Source: Paludibacteraceae bacterium (lineage in GTDB: Bacteria; Bacteroidota; Bacteroidia; Bacteroidales; Paludibacteraceae). Taken from it: a DNA stretch of 46,902 nt. The position numbers and the translations under genes are program-made. Every line of letters starts with the position of its first letter. The first letter of the stretch is position 1. Location of the stretch: the NCBI GenBank assembly GCA_017479885.1, contig JAFVBR010000040.1:1-46902 (forward strand), in the 5' to 3' direction. Under the pieces are notes generated by a model. That model worked only from the letters and a program-made list of their open reading frames with translations. It was not told the origin of the DNA and did no database searches. Below are positions 1,362-16,682 of the stretch, in pieces.

Positions 1362-1616
1362 ATGAAAAAAGGAATTCATCCGGAAAACTACCGCATTGTA
1401 GTATTCAAAGATATGTCTAACGGCGACCAATTCTTCAGCCGTTCAACTGCTGCTACGAAGGACACTATCGAGATTGACGGACAGACCTACCCGCTCATCA
1501 AGCTGGAAATCTCCAACACGTCTCACCCCTTCTACACAGGCAAATCGAAACTTGTGGATACCGCAGGTCGTGTTGACAAATTCATGTCGCGCTACGGCAA
1601 CCGCAACCGCAAGTAA
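1362..1616 (+). CDS. rpmE2: 50S ribosomal protein L31, type B
   Basis: L31 bridges the large and small subunits. The 84-residue product starts [19 protein letters not shown] and ends [12 protein letters not shown]. It contains [20 protein letters not shown] but none of the zinc-binding cysteines of type A L31, so it is the zinc-independent type B form. It lies 20 bases after rplI with AAAGGAAA upstream, and is the last gene before a strong terminator. Placement of an L31 gene directly in the rpsF-rpsR-rplI operon is less usual than the three-gene arrangement. Confidence 0.93.
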
Positions 1617-1669
1617 TACAACACGTCTGCAAAGGATGCTATAAAACCTTTGTTAAGATAAATTCTCTT

Positions 1670-1713
1670 AAGGAGAGGCGTTGCCAGGCAACGCCTCTCC
1701 TTTTCTATTTTTT
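1670..1713 (+). terminator. Rho-independent terminator of the ribosomal operon
   Basis: Arms 1670-1685 and 1687-1702 are exact 16-base reverse complements around a single base. In RNA this gives about a 14-bp stem with a five-base loop. A T-rich tail (TTTTCTATTTTTT) follows at once. It separates the ribosomal operon from the next transcript, whose promoter starts two bases later. Confidence 0.93.
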
Positions 1714-1714
1714 A

Positions 1715-1746
1715 TTTGTGCACTAAATATTTTTTTCATATCTTTG
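1715..1746 (+). promoter_or_regulatory. Bacteroidetes-type promoter of a long non-coding stretch
   Basis: TTTG (1715-1718), 20-nt spacer, TATCTTTG (1739-1746): a perfect match to TTTG/TAnnTTTG with the same spacing as the rpsF promoter. The predicted start near 1752 is about 600 nt before the next gene-sized reading frame, which is far too long for an ordinary leader. Confidence 0.8.
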
Positions 1747-1751
1747 CACTC

Positions 1752-2234
1752 TGAAAACGAACGGACATCGTTTACTGCTGTGATAATAATTGAATTTACA
1801 ATTCATATACCCATGGATTCAGCAAGAAACAGTCTGTTCTGACATCAAATGCCGAACCTGCGCCACTAAGTATCACGTTAGCGAACGGATAGGAAAACAT
1901 TGGCGGAGCGTACTCCGCAATAAAGCAGTTTTCGGTACATTAACATAACTGGCGTCTTTTGAACGCTTTGTATTTGACGCGCAAAAGCTTCGAACACTTT
2001 CAATCCAAGTCAAAAACAGAGTAGCATAAGATGCCTACGGGTATGATTATATACCCTTGTGCAAAAACGCAGCGGGCGAAAGCCTGCGTAGGTCGTTTGT
2101 TTCATGCGGCTTCTGCCGTTCACAACGGGTCATATCATATCGGCGTAGGTTTCGTGTGTTGTTTGTTTGACTTGGTGGACAGTTCGAAGGTCCAAGCGCG
2201 TAGATGAGCAATAGCGGAGTCTACGTTTGTTTTT
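1752..2234 (+). ncRNA. Candidate structured non-coding RNA or long regulatory leader
   Basis: No ORF of gene size is present on either strand. Local hairpins visible by eye include AACGA/TCGTT (1757-1773), TGAAT/ATTCA (1791-1804), GCGGAG/CTCCGC (1904-1918), a bulged GTAG-CAT stem (2021-2038), GGGTAT/ATACCC (2040-2055), a stem with a GAAA loop (2068-2089), GCGGC/GCCGT (2106-2119), a bulged stem with loop AGTTCGAAG (2171-2196), and a terminal stem CGTAGA/TCTACG followed by TTTGTTTTTTT. A consensus promoter sits just upstream. The hallmarks of tmRNA, RNase P RNA, SRP RNA and common riboswitches were looked for and not seen. The 5' end is inferred from the promoter and the 3' end from the terminator-like stem. 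Confidence 0.5.
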
Positions 2235-2237
2235 TTG
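2199..2237 (+). terminator. Terminator-like stem ending the candidate ncRNA
   Basis: CGTAGA (2199-2204) pairs with TCTACG (2220-2225) across a 15-base loop, followed by TTTGTTTTTTT. The stem is only 6 bp, so it may terminate partially and act as an attenuator for the gene at 2355, for which no separate promoter is visible. Confidence 0.45.
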
Positions 2238-2289
2238 TGTCTTTTATAAAACAAAACCGCCTGAATAGCAGACTACGATATATGCAGAT

Positions 2290-2358
2290 ATGACAAACAA
2301 CAATATTAACAATCCTCTAAAAGTTGCTCCCGACACGAATCAAGGGCGAACATCATGA
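2290..2358 (+). CDS. Possible 22-residue leader peptide overlapping the next start codon
   Basis: An ATG at 2290 opens a 22-codon frame rich in Asn (MTNNNINNPLKV, ending NQGRTS). Its TGA overlaps the ATG of the 510-codon gene (ATGA, 2355-2358), the classic geometry for translational coupling. It may be a real leader peptide that feeds ribosomes to the membrane protein. It may also be chance, because short Asn-rich frames are common in A-rich leaders. Confidence 0.25.
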   Translation: MTNNNINNPLKVAPDTNQGRTS

Positions 2359-3887
2359 AAAAACTAAATCTGTCATTTGTTTCCTTTACTACGGCAGGTG
2401 CTGTGTTGCTGTCATTATTACTGGTTTTTATCGGTAAATTCTCGTCAGGTACGGCAAGCAAAATACTCACTATCTGCTCCAATTCGATTCTGTATTTAAG
2501 CGAACTTTTCTTCTTTGTTGTTCTGCTGCTTAAGTCGGAGAAGAAATCACCTATGTATGTGGTGTCAATAGTCGGAATAGCGGCAGCATGTCTTGGTCTC
2601 GCAATTTATATTTGCATGCCCATTATTCTTTTGCTTTCAAACGGTATAGACTTACAGCACATGCAGTTGCTTGAGATGATTCCGATAATAACGTCTTCAC
2701 TAAATACAATTCAGGTCTTCGGGTTCGTATTCGCTCTACTGGCTTTTGTAAAGCCTTTGTCAGATGATAAAGCGGTCAAATATACCGCATGGTCATATCC
2801 TGTTCTGTATCTACTCAGCATATTGTATGCTGTCGTAATTACGGTACTGAAAGTGTCACAAGGTAATGTTGGTCTATCAATTTGGTTGAACAGTATTCCT
2901 GATCTCTTGATTAAGACATTGCTGGCAGCAGTGTTCTGTTTCATAGGGCTGTCATTGAAGAAGGATGAAGAGAGACTGACAGCATGGCAGAGGAACACGG
3001 AGGATAATTCAGCCCGTTTCTCGTATATGAAAAGTTTGTCTTTCATCTGTGCAGCAGGTGCAGTGCTGTCTATTGCTCTCGGCATGTTGGCAGGGCTTGA
3101 TAGTGAGGAACTGACAAACATTCTAATATTAGTGCTGTCAGGTGCTGCTATTCTTCACATGTTGATTGAAATCTTTTCATCAAAAAACATTGCACCACTC
3201 AATGCTGTAGAAAATGCAACCGCCAGACAGGCAAACGGTATGCAACCAATGACTGATGAGGAGGCGGCTGAGTGGATGCAGAAGATGGACGATATCCTCT
3301 CCGAATGGACTCCTTATACCGATGAGAATGGTAATGAAAGTTTTATTATGACAAAATATAGCCAAACTAAGAAAACCCGCACTTTGCTTGAACAAGTGCG
3401 GGCAGCAATGCCTGATAACGAGACCGTGGTTGAGAGGTATAATATGTTTGCAGAAAACTATAACACAGCCATGAAGCGGCACTATAATGGCAGTACTAAA
3501 TATATCATTCTTGCAGCCGTAGTTGCTGTTGCTCTTGGCGCTATAGCAGGTTCATGGTCAACTATACTTACGTTTTTCGGAACACAAATAGTTGTATATA
3601 TAATAGCAAGCATGACACCTACTTATATTCTGAACAAGATAGCACTGAAGCCGGCAAAACCGAAATTCATGTCAGGATTCATAGCAGGCATATTCGGTCT
3701 GACCGCCACTGCCGCCACATATAAGATAACCACACATTGGAGTGACGGAACAACTACCACAAAATACGATGACAGCGAGAAATGGACTTCTGCCATAATC
3801 AGTTTAGTCTTGATTATCTTCATCTGTTTCTTCATGTTTATTCCTGCAATCATGAACTATATAAGAAACTACATACTGCATGTGTGA
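2355..3887 (+). CDS. Polytopic membrane protein of unknown function
   Basis: The 510-residue protein is not recognised as a known family. About eight hydrophobic segments lie in residues 10-265 (for example AVLLSLLLVFIG, VSIVGIAAACLGLAIYI, FICAAGAVLSIALGMLAGL, ILILVLSGAAILHMLIEIF). A soluble, acidic stretch follows (about 275-375, including DEEAAEWMQKMDDILSEW). Three or four more membrane segments come near the C-terminus (YIILAAVVAVALGAIAGSW, FMSGFIAGIFGLTATAA, ISLVLIIFICFFMFIPAI). No catalytic or transporter motif is evident. It starts a same-strand cluster of envelope proteins. Expression probably depends on the unusual 600-nt upstream region, because no closer promoter is visible. Confidence 0.75.
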   Translation: MKKLNLSFVSFTTAGAVLLSLLLVFIGKFSSGTASKILTICSNSILYLSELFFFVVLLLKSEKKSPMYVVSIVGIAAACLGLAIYICMPIILLLSNGIDLQHMQLLEMIPIITSSLNTIQVFGFVFALLAFVKPLSDDKAVKYTAWSYPVLYLLSILYAVVITVLKVSQGNVGLSIWLNSIPDLLIKTLLAAVFCFIGLSLKKDEERLTAWQRNTEDNSARFSYMKSLSFICAAGAVLSIALGMLAGLDSEELTNILILVLSGAAILHMLIEIFSSKNIAPLNAVENATARQANGMQPMTDEEAAEWMQKMDDILSEWTPYTDENGNESFIMTKYSQTKKTRTLLEQVRAAMPDNETVVERYNMFAENYNTAMKRHYNGSTKYIILAAVVAVALGAIAGSWSTILTFFGTQIVVYIIASMTPTYILNKIALKPAKPKFMSGFIAGIFGLTATAATYKITTHWSDGTTTTKYDDSEKWTSAIISLVLIIFICFFMFIPAIMNYIRNYILHV

Positions 3888-5536: not shown

Positions 5537-7231
5537 ATGAGATATAAAATCAGATATAAGATTAGATATAAAATCAGAATATTATTGTTATTGTCAGTCA
5601 TGTTTCTGGTTTCTTGTGTTCAGCACGAATTGAACATGTATGGAGGCATATCAGGAGTGGTGAAAGATGCAGAAAGCAATCAGCCATTGCCCGGTGTAAG
5701 GGTCAGTTTGTCCCCAACGGGCTTGTCACAGGTGACAGAGAAAGACGGCCAGTTTACATTTACAGAACTGGAACCCAACGACTATACCATGACATTTGAA
5801 AAGGCCGGCTATTTAGGTCAGACAACAAAGGTAACGGTGGTTGCCGACATCTCATCGTCTGTGCAAATAGCATTGCAAGAGAACCAACTCGGAATAGATA
5901 TACGGCCATATTCACTCAACTTCGGTGCAACTACACAGACCCTACAACTTAAGCTTACGAGCGACGGGCGCACAATACATTATAAGGCGGAAACCTCTGC
6001 AAACTGGATTTCGCTCATTCGGAATTCAGGAAGTGTGACAACACAAGAAGTACTCACTATCAGTGTTGCTCGCGCAGGGTTAGCAGCCGGTGAATATACT
6101 GGCGATGTGCGTATTTCGGTAGAGGACAAGTACTTGACCATTCCCGTGACAATGCTTGTAGAAGGTGCAGCTCTGCCACAAATCTCCCTTGAAGGAGTAA
6201 CTGCCGTAAATGCCACAGAAGTCCAGCTTACGGGAGTGCTCCAGTCGGTGGGTACTATAGATGGTGTTTCGGAATACGGGGTATGCTATTCTCTGCAATC
6301 AAAACCTACTACTGACAACGATTGTGCCCGCATGGGAAGCAGCAAACAACCGAAGGATTTTACGTGCAACATAGCAGGACTTACAATGGGTAAGACTTAC
6401 TACTTCAGGGCTTATGCTGTTAATTCCCAAGGAGTGGCATACAGTGAGCAACTGACGGTGCAGACCATAGCTCCTCCCGAATTGGGTGAACTAAGCGTTA
6501 AGTCGGTAGGAGTGGATAAGGTAGTGGTGAGCGGTTCTCTGAAGTCGGTGGGAACAACAGGCTTTGTAACTGACTACGGAATATGTTATTCGCTACAGAC
6601 TGCTCCTACACGGAACAGTGAAAAGCTGTCGTTAGGAAGCACCTCAAATGCAACGAATATAGAGGGAGTGGTGGACGGACTGGTAGCTCAGACCGTATAT
6701 TATCTGCGTGCTTATGCTGTCTATGTGAGCAACGGACTTGAGATGGTTGTTTATAGCAATCAAGTGGTAGCTCAGACCACCAAACAGACCACTCAGCAAC
6801 CGACAGAAGATTATAGCAGTGCAAAAATCAGTACGGGTAACGGCAAGTTGGCGATGACGCTGCTCAGTTGTCTTCGTGCAGGCAATCGTGTTACCATAGA
6901 AGCAACACTGCTCAATAAGAGCATCAGCCCGGACAACAGTTTCTCTACTGTTTCGATAGGCAATTCCAATACAGCAGGTTTGACTCACGTGGAAGATAAT
7001 CTGTTTACTGATTATGCGTGGACATCATTGATGGTGTATCTGAACAATGCGTCAGGACACAATCTGCCCAGCACACCTCTTCCGATAGGTTCGACAAAAC
7101 GTCTTACTCTTACTATTGACGGTGTGCCACAATCTGCACAGACAATAAGCGTCTATATAGCGGCAGAATTCTATTACACCACGCCCACAGAATATTGCTA
7201 CCTTACGTTTGAGAACGTACCGATATATTGA
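5537..7231 (+). CDS. Surface lipoprotein with carboxypeptidase-like, BACON-like and Fn3-like domains
   Basis: The 564-residue product has a lipoprotein signal (MFLVSC, Cys27). In order it has a carboxypeptidase regulatory-like beta-sandwich (about 36-115: GGISGVVKDAESNQPLPGV), a BACON-like domain (about 120-210: ANWISLIRNSGSV, then GEYTGDVRISV), and two Fn3-like repeats (about 213-310 and 314-415, each with YG(V/I)CYSLQ and TYYLRAYAV-type strands). The C-terminal domain (about 430-564) is almost identical to that of the next gene. This architecture is typical of outer-membrane surface proteins in Bacteroidales, probably for binding polysaccharide or host ligands. The N-terminus is odd: three copies of RYKI encoded by a 12-bp tandem repeat precede the hydrophobic core. 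Confidence 0.75.
   Translation: MRYKIRYKIRYKIRILLLLSVMFLVSCVQHELNMYGGISGVVKDAESNQPLPGVRVSLSPTGLSQVTEKDGQFTFTELEPNDYTMTFEKAGYLGQTTKVTVVADISSSVQIALQENQLGIDIRPYSLNFGATTQTLQLKLTSDGRTIHYKAETSANWISLIRNSGSVTTQEVLTISVARAGLAAGEYTGDVRISVEDKYLTIPVTMLVEGAALPQISLEGVTAVNATEVQLTGVLQSVGTIDGVSEYGVCYSLQSKPTTDNDCARMGSSKQPKDFTCNIAGLTMGKTYYFRAYAVNSQGVAYSEQLTVQTIAPPELGELSVKSVGVDKVVVSGSLKSVGTTGFVTDYGICYSLQTAPTRNSEKLSLGSTSNATNIEGVVDGLVAQTVYYLRAYAVYVSNGLEMVVYSNQVVAQTTKQTTQQPTEDYSSAKISTGNGKLAMTLLSCLRAGNRVTIEATLLNKSISPDNSFSTVSIGNSNTAGLTHVEDNLFTDYAWTSLMVYLNNASGHNLPSTPLPIGSTKRLTLTIDGVPQSAQTISVYIAAEFYYTTPTEYCYLTFENVPIY
5540..5575 (+). repeat. 12-bp tandem repeat (three copies) encoding RYKI
   Basis: AGATATAAAATC, AGATATAAGATT and AGATATAAAATC follow each other directly after the ATG of the 564-residue lipoprotein. 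Copy-number changes by slippage would keep the frame and only lengthen the positively charged n-region of the signal peptide. Confidence 0.85.
6863..7231 (+). repeat. First copy of a 369-bp direct repeat (C-terminal lipoprotein domain)
   Basis: This segment, which ends exactly at the stop codon, aligns without gaps with 7710-8078 (offset 847). Mismatches are few, and most are silent. It encodes a 122-residue segment from LSCLRAGNRVTIEATLLNKS to YLTFENVPIY. Confidence 0.9.
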
Positions 7232-7271: not shown

Positions 7272-8078
7272 ATGAAAGGAAAATCACTGATTCCAATTAT
7301 TTGTGTACTTGCTTATGCTTCGTGCAACAATTCCATATTCTCTAACATCGACAGTTATCCTGCATTTAATGAGATAACGTTTGAAACAATATCATCGGAT
7401 TATGCCGACCTGTATTGCAGTTTGTCGAGTCAGGGCAATTACGAGATAGAGGAACTGGGGTTTGTTATGAGTACGGAACCCGATGCGGCGACAACAGGCT
7501 CCGCTTTTCCCGCCACTATAGGAAGAGGCGACTCTTATCTTACACTCGTTGGTTTAACTCCTAACACGACCTATTATGTATGTGCTTACGCCAAGTTAAC
7601 TAACGGAAAATATCGTGTAGGGCAGGAATATCAGTTCACCACTCTCAAGAAAGGCGATTACAGCAGTGCAAAAGTGGAGTGTAGTAACTATAAGCTGGAA
7701 CTGGTACTTCTCAGTTGTCTTCGTGCAGGCAATCGCGTTACCATAGAAGCAACACTGCTCAATAAAAGTATAAGCCCTGACAATAGTTTCTTCACACGTG
7801 AAATAGGCAAATCCAATACAGCAGGTATGACTCATGTGGAAGACAATCTGTTTACTGATTATGCATGGACATCATTGATGGTATATCTGAACAACGCGTC
7901 TGGACACAATCTGCCCAGTACACCTCTTCCGATAGGTTCGACAAAGCGTCTGACTCTTACTATTGACGGCGTGCCACATTCCGCACAGACAATAAGCGTC
8001 TATATAGCGGCAGAATTCTATTACACCACACCTACAGAATATTGCTACCTTACGTTTGAGAACGTGCCGATATATTAA
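7272..8078 (+). CDS. Surface lipoprotein, shorter paralogue sharing the C-terminal domain
   Basis: 268 residues: lipoprotein signal with lipobox YASC (Cys18), one Fn3-like domain (about 30-125: ELGFVMSTEPDAA, then TYYVCAYAKL), and a C-terminal domain (about 135-268) nearly identical to that of the upstream gene. The gap to the previous gene is 40 bp, so it is probably the last gene of the cluster. The shared domain is not recognised. Its strong conservation, while the N-terminal parts differ, suggests recent duplication or gene conversion of a shared functional module with variable presenting stalks. Confidence 0.7.
   Translation: MKGKSLIPIICVLAYASCNNSIFSNIDSYPAFNEITFETISSDYADLYCSLSSQGNYEIEELGFVMSTEPDAATTGSAFPATIGRGDSYLTLVGLTPNTTYYVCAYAKLTNGKYRVGQEYQFTTLKKGDYSSAKVECSNYKLELVLLSCLRAGNRVTIEATLLNKSISPDNSFFTREIGKSNTAGMTHVEDNLFTDYAWTSLMVYLNNASGHNLPSTPLPIGSTKRLTLTIDGVPHSAQTISVYIAAEFYYTTPTEYCYLTFENVPIY
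7710..8078 (+). repeat. Second copy of the 369-bp direct repeat
   Basis: See 6863-7231. The copies diverge mainly in one patch that changes SFSTVSIGNSN to SFFTREIGKSN. The repeat stops at the stop codon in both genes. Confidence 0.9.
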
Positions 8079-16596: not shown

Positions 16597-16682
16597 TACC
16601 GCGAGTGGGACTTGAACCCACACAGCCGTTTCGGGCCAAAGGATTTTAAGTCCTTCGTGTCTACCGATTCCACCATCGCGGC
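16597..16682 (-). tRNA. tRNA-Leu (anticodon TAA)
   Basis: An 86-nt class II tRNA. The 5' acceptor strand GCCGCGA pairs with TCGCGGT, and the discriminator is A. The anticodon arm is AGGACTTAAAATCCT with anticodon TAA. The variable arm is long (GGCCCGAAACGGC region), and the T arm is GTGGGTTCAAGTCCCAC. The D arm contains GGTGGAATCGGTAGACAC. CCA is not encoded. The first acceptor pair is a G-T wobble. Confidence 0.95.

What the first reader, a model, noticed from the sequence alone, without database searches (positions are those of the whole stretch)
1715..2358. Unrecognised ~480-nt structured RNA or leader with its own promoter and terminator
A perfect promoter (TTTG-N20-TATCTTTG) fires into about 480 nt with no gene but at least nine local hairpins, ending in a stem with a T-run. 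The next gene, an unknown polytopic membrane protein, has no nearer promoter. Either an independent ncRNA or a long attenuating leader controls an envelope gene cluster. The hallmarks of tmRNA, RNase P RNA, SRP RNA and common riboswitches were not seen.
Basis: partly seen in the sequence, partly recalled or inferred. Interest (0 to 1): 0.8.

Follow-up and report, generated by a model that had tools for sequence, protein, structure and literature searches.

The report
Large attenuating leader RNA in Bacteroidales
A roughly 300-nucleotide folded RNA with no match in the Rfam library precedes about ten unrelated genes in this bacterium and appears able to refold between stopping transcription and letting it run into the gene, so it looks like a new class of gene-control switch.

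Summary
Confirmed, and larger than stated. Window 1715-2358 holds one of at least ten copies in this genome of a conserved structured RNA without an Rfam match. It recurs in 57 of 120 genomes of the same family and 28 of 295 of the order, and in none of 295 others drawn across the phylum. Covariation is decisive: in 92 copies 27 of 35 pairs change on both sides, and 97% of cells pair against 29-41% when slid. It is a 5' leader: 151 of 156 copies with a called downstream ORF have it on the same strand; a promoter box lies upstream in 159 of 179 (15 expected), without excess between T-run and start codon (10 of 107; 7.5 expected). In 158 of 164 copies the terminator's 5' strand overlaps helices of the fold; forcing the terminator costs a median 3.7 kcal/mol. 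Best reading: a two-state transcription attenuator, riboswitch-like, signal unknown, before varied genes. DUF805b, a known element, lies before the AUG on some leaders. Ligand, expression and switching are untested; Y-X2 covariation is only partial.

The parts
1715..1746 (+). Bacteroidetes-type promoter: TTTG, N20, TATCTTTG
   Evidence: Sequence. TANNTTTG occurs in the 160 nt from -210 to -50 before the core in 159 of 179 copies, 15.3 expected by shuffling.
1750..1850 (+). 5' extension, not shared by the other copies aligned
   Evidence: Sequence and 5-copy alignment.
1852..1935 (+). P1 domain: CCGAA 1852-1856 with TTCGG 1931-1935; carries the element CCTGCGCC 1857-1864, complementary (one G-U) to GGCGTAGG 2142-2149
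   Evidence: Coordinates. In other copies the 5' element covaries with the H6 3' strand: of 136 candidates 121 C-G or U-A, 14 U-G, 1 mismatch at the variable position. The pattern of that call did not match the window's own element, which I assigned by eye; the closing stem of P1 is weakly supported (34 of 123).
1951..1967 (+). P2 hairpin GGCGT/ACGCT
   Evidence: 97.7% of cells paired in 27 copies.
1977..1982 (+). H3 5' strand (A) ACGCGC, pairs with GCGCGT 2196-2201
   Evidence: Own partner beats at least 90% of foreign partners in 156 of 163 copies; 7 of 7 pairs with double changes in 27 copies.
1988..1994 (+). H4 5' strand CTTCGAA, pairs with TTCGAAG 2183-2189
   Evidence: 98.9% of cells paired in 92 copies, 5 of 7 pairs with double changes.
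2005..2013 (+). H5 5' strand CCAAGTCAA, pairs with TTGACTTGG 2167-2175
   Evidence: 9 of 9 pairs with double changes in 92 copies.
2033..2149 (+). H6: GCCTACGGGTATGAT 2033-2047 with ATCATATCGGCGTAGG 2134-2149; variable tip, enlarged in this copy
   Evidence: 98.0% of cells paired, 10 of 14 pairs with double changes in 92 copies.
2151..2170 (+). Y strand TTCGTGTGTTGTTTGTTTGA, complementary to the terminator loop (X2)
   Evidence: Duplex with X2 -14.8 kcal/mol; covariation partial.
2183..2189 (+). H4 3' strand TTCGAAG
   Evidence: As for the H4 5' strand.
2196..2201 (+). H3 3' strand (B) GCGCGT, overlaps the terminator 5' strand by CGT
2199..2236 (+). Intrinsic terminator: CGTAGA 2199-2204 / TCTACG 2220-2225, T-run 2226-2236; X2 is 2201-2218
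   Evidence: T-run in 150 of 163 copies, in most 35-39 nt after the H4 3' strand; 5' strand overlaps H3 and/or H4 in 158 of 164.
2329..2346 (+). Pre-AUG word CCCGACACGAATCAAGGG, possibly a short cis-element
   Evidence: The only other exact site of its core in the genome is C9:37009; function inferred from position.
2355..3887 (+). Downstream gene: 510-aa polytopic membrane protein of unknown function
   Evidence: No Pfam match over cut-off. A homologue (36% over residues 254-509) in G110 also lies behind this RNA.

Best explanation
A Bacteroidales class of about 300-nt transcription-attenuating 5' leader RNA. Transcription starts at a Bacteroidetes promoter. The RNA folds into a long hairpin (H3-H4-H5-H6) with a 5' domain (P1) that can pair at long range with the H6 3' strand, and a strand Y able to pair with the loop of the following hairpin. 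In this folded state H3, H4 and Y-X2 hold the 5' part of an intrinsic terminator, so RNA polymerase runs on into the gene. If the fold is not held, the terminator forms and transcription stops, in the window about 120 nt before the gene. Shown by computation: family, structure, leader position, overlap of terminator and fold, near balance of the two states. Inferred: that the states really switch, which state is ON, and that a ligand, a protein or another RNA chooses between them. I think a small molecule or ion slightly the likelier chooser, from the size and conservation of the fold and the many unlinked copies; this step is a guess.
For: Covariation: 23 of 51 pairs with double changes in 27 copies, 27 of 35 in 92 copies. 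H3 own-partner test 156 of 163, 143 of 147 with a relatedness filter; H4 145 of 147. Same-strand ORF downstream in 151 of 156, median 129 nt after the model end, while the upstream ORF is co-directional in only 107 of 151; 10 of 10 copies in this genome. Promoter box upstream in 159 of 179 (15.3 expected); no excess between T-run and start codon in the 107 leaders with a T-run and a gap of 40-350 nt, 10 of 107 (7.5 expected). T-run in 150 of 163. Terminator 5' strand overlaps H3 and/or H4 in 158 of 164 although its sequence and place differ between lineages. Without constraint the fold keeps H4 in 141 of 159 and forms the terminator in 37; forcing it costs a median 3.7 kcal/mol. GAGTAGG, the core of the cis-element DUF805b, occurs within 140 nt after the T-run in 28 of 164 (0.8 expected); in two own-genome copies DUF805b itself lies between T-run and AUG.
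Against: No expression data. Downstream genes share no pathway, unusual for a metabolite switch. Pairing of B with C in the terminator tip is not supported (18 of 147), and terminator halves beat at least 90% of foreign halves in only 61 of 147. Y-X2 does so in only 60 of 163, and its position table chose the best-scoring anchor and rests partly on G-U pairs. 13 of 163 copies lack the T-run searched for, and the window's own terminator is weak (-10.2). The overlap count has no null model: B lies next to the terminator in every copy. The energies leave out pseudoknots and the 5' domain.
Confidence: 0.72

Rival explanations
1. An independent, trans-acting small RNA gene with its own promoter and terminator, present in several copies per genome, that lies before genes without controlling them.
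For: Own promoter box and terminator; large conserved fold; strands with several possible partners.
Against: 151 of 156 copies precede a same-strand ORF; no excess of promoter boxes before those genes; DUF805b, a cis-element by its Rfam type, follows the RNA in a share of copies; the terminator conflicts with the fold, which a free sRNA would not need.
Confidence: 0.15
2. The same leader, but switched by a protein (antitermination factor) or by another RNA, not by a small molecule. This is a variant of the best explanation, so the two figures overlap.
For: Downstream genes share no evident metabolite; the invariant strands could be protein or RNA binding sites.
Against: No partner gene or RNA is known; none was searched for here.
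Confidence: 0.35
3. Leader-peptide attenuation, in which translation of a short ORF in the leader decides the fold.
For: An ATG occurs in the H6 region searched in 180 of 182 copies, and a 58-aa ORF runs from 2031 to 2207, into the terminator, in the window.
Against: ORF length varies (10-90%: 12 to 56 aa), as does its end, the frame is not kept (82/48/46 over the three frames), and the ATGs of this region lie in or beside paired, conserved positions. ATGs close behind the promoter box were counted (101 of 163) but their frames were not analysed.
Confidence: 0.03
4. A mobile or repeated DNA element that carries a promoter and terminator and has been scattered in front of genes.
For: Many copies with unrelated neighbours.
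Against: Compensatory changes rather than near-identity; a regular place before genes; the window's core has no blastn match in the phage or plasmid collections, and none of the 3 viral contigs with the core word holds the RNA. Target-site duplications were not looked for.
Confidence: 0.03

Closest known systems
Transcription-terminating riboswitches in which a loop pairs with the expression platform (cobalamin class; recalled, from no call)
   Same: 5' leader of some hundred nt, conserved fold, exclusive terminator, pairing with the platform loop (here Y-X2).
   Different: No Rfam model matches; ligand unknown; downstream genes do not form a metabolic pathway.
DUF805b RNA (Rfam RF02914)
   Same: Bacteroidales cis-element near the AUG; found on some of these leaders.
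   Different: 35 nt, a separate element: among the 59 DUF805b loci fetched (best matches), 4 hold a match to the large RNA at E below 1e-4; no match in window 1500-2700.
Bacteroidales-1, Bacteroides-1, Bacteroid-trp and 6S-flavo RNAs
   Same: Structured RNAs of Bacteroidetes listed with Rfam numbers in PMC2864571 (passages seen).
   Different: No Rfam family reaches its threshold on this RNA; I take it that these four are in the library.
trp-type leader-peptide attenuators (recalled)
   Same: Exclusive antiterminator and terminator.
   Different: No conserved leader ORF in the H6 region.

Membership tests
Transcription-attenuating leader RNA (general kind) | Lies in the 5' leader of a gene, same strand, transcribed from an upstream promoter | tested here: met
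   151 of 156; promoter-box counts. By sequence only; no transcript data.
Transcription-attenuating leader RNA (general kind) | Intrinsic terminator before the coding region | tested here: met
   T-run in 150 of 163 at a nearly fixed distance; median fold of the stretch before it -18.9 kcal/mol.
Transcription-attenuating leader RNA (general kind) | An alternative fold that excludes the terminator | tested here: met
   Overlap in 158 of 164; cost of forcing the terminator median 3.7 kcal/mol in 159; prediction only.
Transcription-attenuating leader RNA (general kind) | Read-through changes with a signal | not testable with these tools
   Needs in vitro transcription or reporters.
Riboswitch | Conserved structure with covariation | tested here: met
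Riboswitch | Binds a ligand without protein | not testable with these tools
   None.
Riboswitch | Controls genes tied to one ligand | tested here: inconclusive
   131 downstream proteins: LRR_5 in 15, otherwise at most 4 members per family apart from the overlapping LRR_8; no shared pathway seen.
Any RNA family of Rfam 15 | Score over the gathering threshold | tested here: not met
   Window: only a tRNA at 16597. 18 and 20 further loci (three in both): only DUF805b, outside this RNA.
Independent sRNA gene | Neighbouring gene has its own promoter | tested here: not met
   TANNTTTG in 10 of 107 gaps, 7.5 expected; other promoter types not tested.
DUF805b RNA | Match to RF02914 | tested here: not met
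   No match in window 1500-2700 at E up to 10.
Leader-peptide attenuator | Conserved short ORF in the leader | tested here: not met
   Frame and length not kept for the ORF of the H6 region; ORFs nearer the promoter were not analysed.

The most novel reading that the evidence does not exclude
A new, large, multi-state riboswitch class of Bacteroidales. One highly conserved strand (GGCGTAGG and variants) can pair with a 5' element, with its hairpin partner, or with the terminator's 3' strand. A single unknown ligand would set a whole regulon of unrelated, often secreted-protein genes, with a second small cis-element (DUF805b or another) before the AUG as an additional control on some of them.
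Probability: 0.35. Interest if true: 0.88.

Novelty: new variant of a known kind. Interest (0 to 1): 0.72.

Why it matters
It would add a large structured leader RNA, with up to 11 matches in one genome, to a bacterial order important in rumen and gut, and tie scattered, often secreted-protein genes into one testable regulon. If a ligand exists it would be a new riboswitch class and would say what these bacteria sense before they change what they put on or outside the cell. It also shows that the orphan Rfam element DUF805b can be part of a composite leader.

Tried and rejected
Rfam: the weak sub-threshold matches near window 1643-1805 centre on the perfect terminator hairpin of the upstream ribosomal operon at 1671-1702, not on this RNA. 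A further part of the switch (segment B pairing with C in the terminator tip) looked convincing by eye but failed the own-versus-foreign test (18 of 147); I dropped it. Leader peptide in the H6 region: rejected. DUF805b as the 3' piece of this RNA: the three DUF805b sites over cut-off in the genome all lie downstream of a strong or weak model match, but among 59 DUF805b loci fetched from order and family 4 hold a match at E below 1e-4, so it is a separate module. Phages and plasmids: no blastn match for the window's 311-base core.

Rows dropped and limits: antisense CM matches (17, 4) and repeats (186 listed hits to 165 copies; 182 copies after 17 were added). L095, L104, L116, L122 and L161 hold the 19-base word but no CM match (95 of 100 did). 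The Pfam scan took 131 of the 151 same-strand neighbours (at least 90 aa, start within 420 nt, repeats removed), each cut at 360 residues. Up to three copies near a locus edge were read wrongly; one search repeats the count without them. The closing stem of P1 was weakly supported (34 of 123). The P values ignore relatedness and I do not rely on them. A6 was fitted to the model, so leans to its structure; A1 was not, but the structure was drawn from it. Papers: of PMC2864571 and PMC8040213 I saw found passages; all others only as search listings. That this RNA is not in print rests in an open-licence library and on Rfam; Weinberg 2017 is not held.

Full report
What is there. The window is contig C7 of a 2.8 Mb genome in 50 contigs. 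Between a ribosomal protein gene ending at 1616, with a strong terminator hairpin at 1671-1702, and a membrane-protein gene at 2355 lie a promoter of Bacteroidetes type (1715-1746), about 480 nt without a gene, a stem with a T-run (2199-2236) and a further 118 nt. 1750-2240 folds better than each of 100 shuffles, z -5.3. Rfam finds nothing in it over threshold, nor a relevant weak match.

A family. A search of the own genome with the DNA found partial matches elsewhere; four could be read as full copies, each with a TANNTTTG box upstream. In the genus 22 of 41 genomes, the own one included, had a match. From 27 copies I drew a structure by hand on a MAFFT alignment: P2 hairpin, then nested H3, H4, H5 and H6, and a terminator stem. 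On it 94.5% of cells form standard pairs, against 33.5-42.5% when partners are slid, and 23 of 51 pairs have changes on both sides against a shuffled mean of 15.2. A covariance model of the core (R1, 154 positions) finds 10 places in the own genome, matches in 57 of 120 genomes and 19 of 33 genera of the family, up to 11 in one genome, in 28 of 295 genomes of the order, in 15 families, and in none of 295 other genomes drawn across the phylum. On 92 copies aligned to the model 97.0% of cells pair (slid: 29.4-40.9%) and 27 of 35 pairs have double changes. Of the 80 named stretches listed with the core word nearly all are Paludibacteraceae or uncultured Bacteroidales, mostly from rumen and gut; contigs G110:C9 (same genus) and G072:C1 (same family) have the lengths of named Paludibacteraceae contigs, which is why I place the window in that family.

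A leader. Of 165 distinct copies the next ORF downstream is on the same strand in 151, opposite in 5, not seen in 9; the upstream ORF is co-directional in 107, opposite in 44, not seen in 14 (ORFs called mechanically). All ten copies of the own genome have a same-strand ORF downstream, though one lies 1156 nt away. TANNTTTG occurs in the 160 nt before the core in 159 of 179 copies (15.3 expected), but between T-run and start codon in only 10 of the 107 leaders with a T-run and a gap of 40-350 nt (7.5 expected). So the gene is most simply transcribed through the RNA. A distant homologue of the window's membrane protein in G110 (36% over the C-terminal half) also follows this RNA, with 130 nt between model end and gene; homologues in two genomes of another genus have no clear match (best 11 bits).

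The switch. A T-run follows in 150 of 163 copies, in most 35-39 nt after the H4 3' strand. H3 pairs strand A, just 5' of H4, with strand B, just 3' of it; the own partner beats at least 90% of foreign partners in 156 of 163 copies. The terminator is not the same in all lineages. In one group its base is GCGAAGGCCTC with GAGGTCTRCGC, which uses the H4 3' strand and encloses B; in others, the window's among them, it is CGTAGA/TCTACG or GCGTGGGA/TCCCACGC and the like, which shares a few bases with B (listing). In 158 of 164 copies its 5' strand overlaps H3 and/or H4; 5 have no stem reaching the T-run, 1 no overlap. Minimum-energy folds (no pseudoknots, no 5' domain) keep H4 in 141 of 159 and form the terminator in 37; forcing it costs a median 3.7 kcal/mol, 2.1 for the window. 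The two states are thus close in energy and compete.

Long-range pairings. Strand Y, on the 3' side between H6 and H5, is complementary to the terminator loop over some 10-13 pairs in sequences as different as TGTTGTTTATT/AATAAGCAACA and CGTTGCTCGTTC/GACGAGCAAC. In the 151 of 163 copies with the anchor used, three positions show double changes in 31-32 copies each. The own partner is better than at least 90% of foreign ones in only 60 of 163, and better than half in 142; many copies share both strands. The 5' element CTACGCYG pairs with the H6 3' strand CRGCGTAG: of 171 copies tested 136 have a candidate, and at the variable position 121 are C-G or U-A, 14 U-G and 1 mismatched; 35 copies, the window among those, have no match to the pattern. 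The H6 3' strand is therefore a possible hub with three partners: the 5' element, its hairpin partner, and the terminator's 3' end. This is inference from complementarity; which partner holds when is unknown.

What it serves. 131 downstream proteins scanned with Pfam gave BspA-type leucine-rich repeats in 15 and no unrelated family in more than 4. Many begin with a signal peptide or lipoprotein signal by eye; among the rest are a HEPN protein, an AAA and an FRG protein. No pathway stands out.

Composite leaders. In two own-genome copies the known element DUF805b lies between T-run and AUG. Its core GAGTAGG follows the T-run within 140 nt in 28 of 164 copies (0.8 expected). DUF805b by itself is commoner (over cut-off in 71 of 149 genomes of the order), so it is a separate module. 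The window has another short word, CCCGACACGAATCAAGGG, nine nt before the AUG, with one other exact site of its core in the genome, at C9:37009, where a weak match to the RNA (21.5 bits) lies some 400 nt upstream.

Judgement. New to Rfam, strongly supported as a structured RNA and a leader, supported as an attenuator by anatomy, not tested for function. Nothing here names the signal.

Noticed in passing
window 2329-2346; G000:C9:37009-37024 (L246): A word CCCGACACGAATNAAGGG lies shortly before the AUG of two different genes, perhaps a short cis-element like DUF805b.
   Followed up: partly
L010 (G000:C47:64571), L073 (G000:C33:56688), L214 (G000:C6:4821): DUF805b (RF02914) lies between the large RNA's T-run and the AUG in the first two, and downstream of a weak RNA match (26 bits) in the third.
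   Followed up: yes
window 5537-7231 and 7272-8078: Two neighbouring genes share a nearly identical C-terminal stretch of about 100 residues, as after a local duplication.
   Followed up: no
window 1671-1702: Perfect 14-bp inverted repeat with T-run, the ordinary terminator of the ribosomal protein operon; the weak miRNA-like Rfam matches centre on it.
   Followed up: yes
L088, L055, L056, L066, L223, L225, downstream of the T-run: Some leaders of divergent type show a small hairpin with GGGARTY in or near its loop before the gene (strict word in 8 of 164, 1.6 expected).
   Followed up: partly
L306 (G055:C8), 1331-1426, upstream of DUF805b: A shortened form of the large RNA (33 bits) with the long hairpin trimmed, possibly a minimal version.
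   Followed up: no
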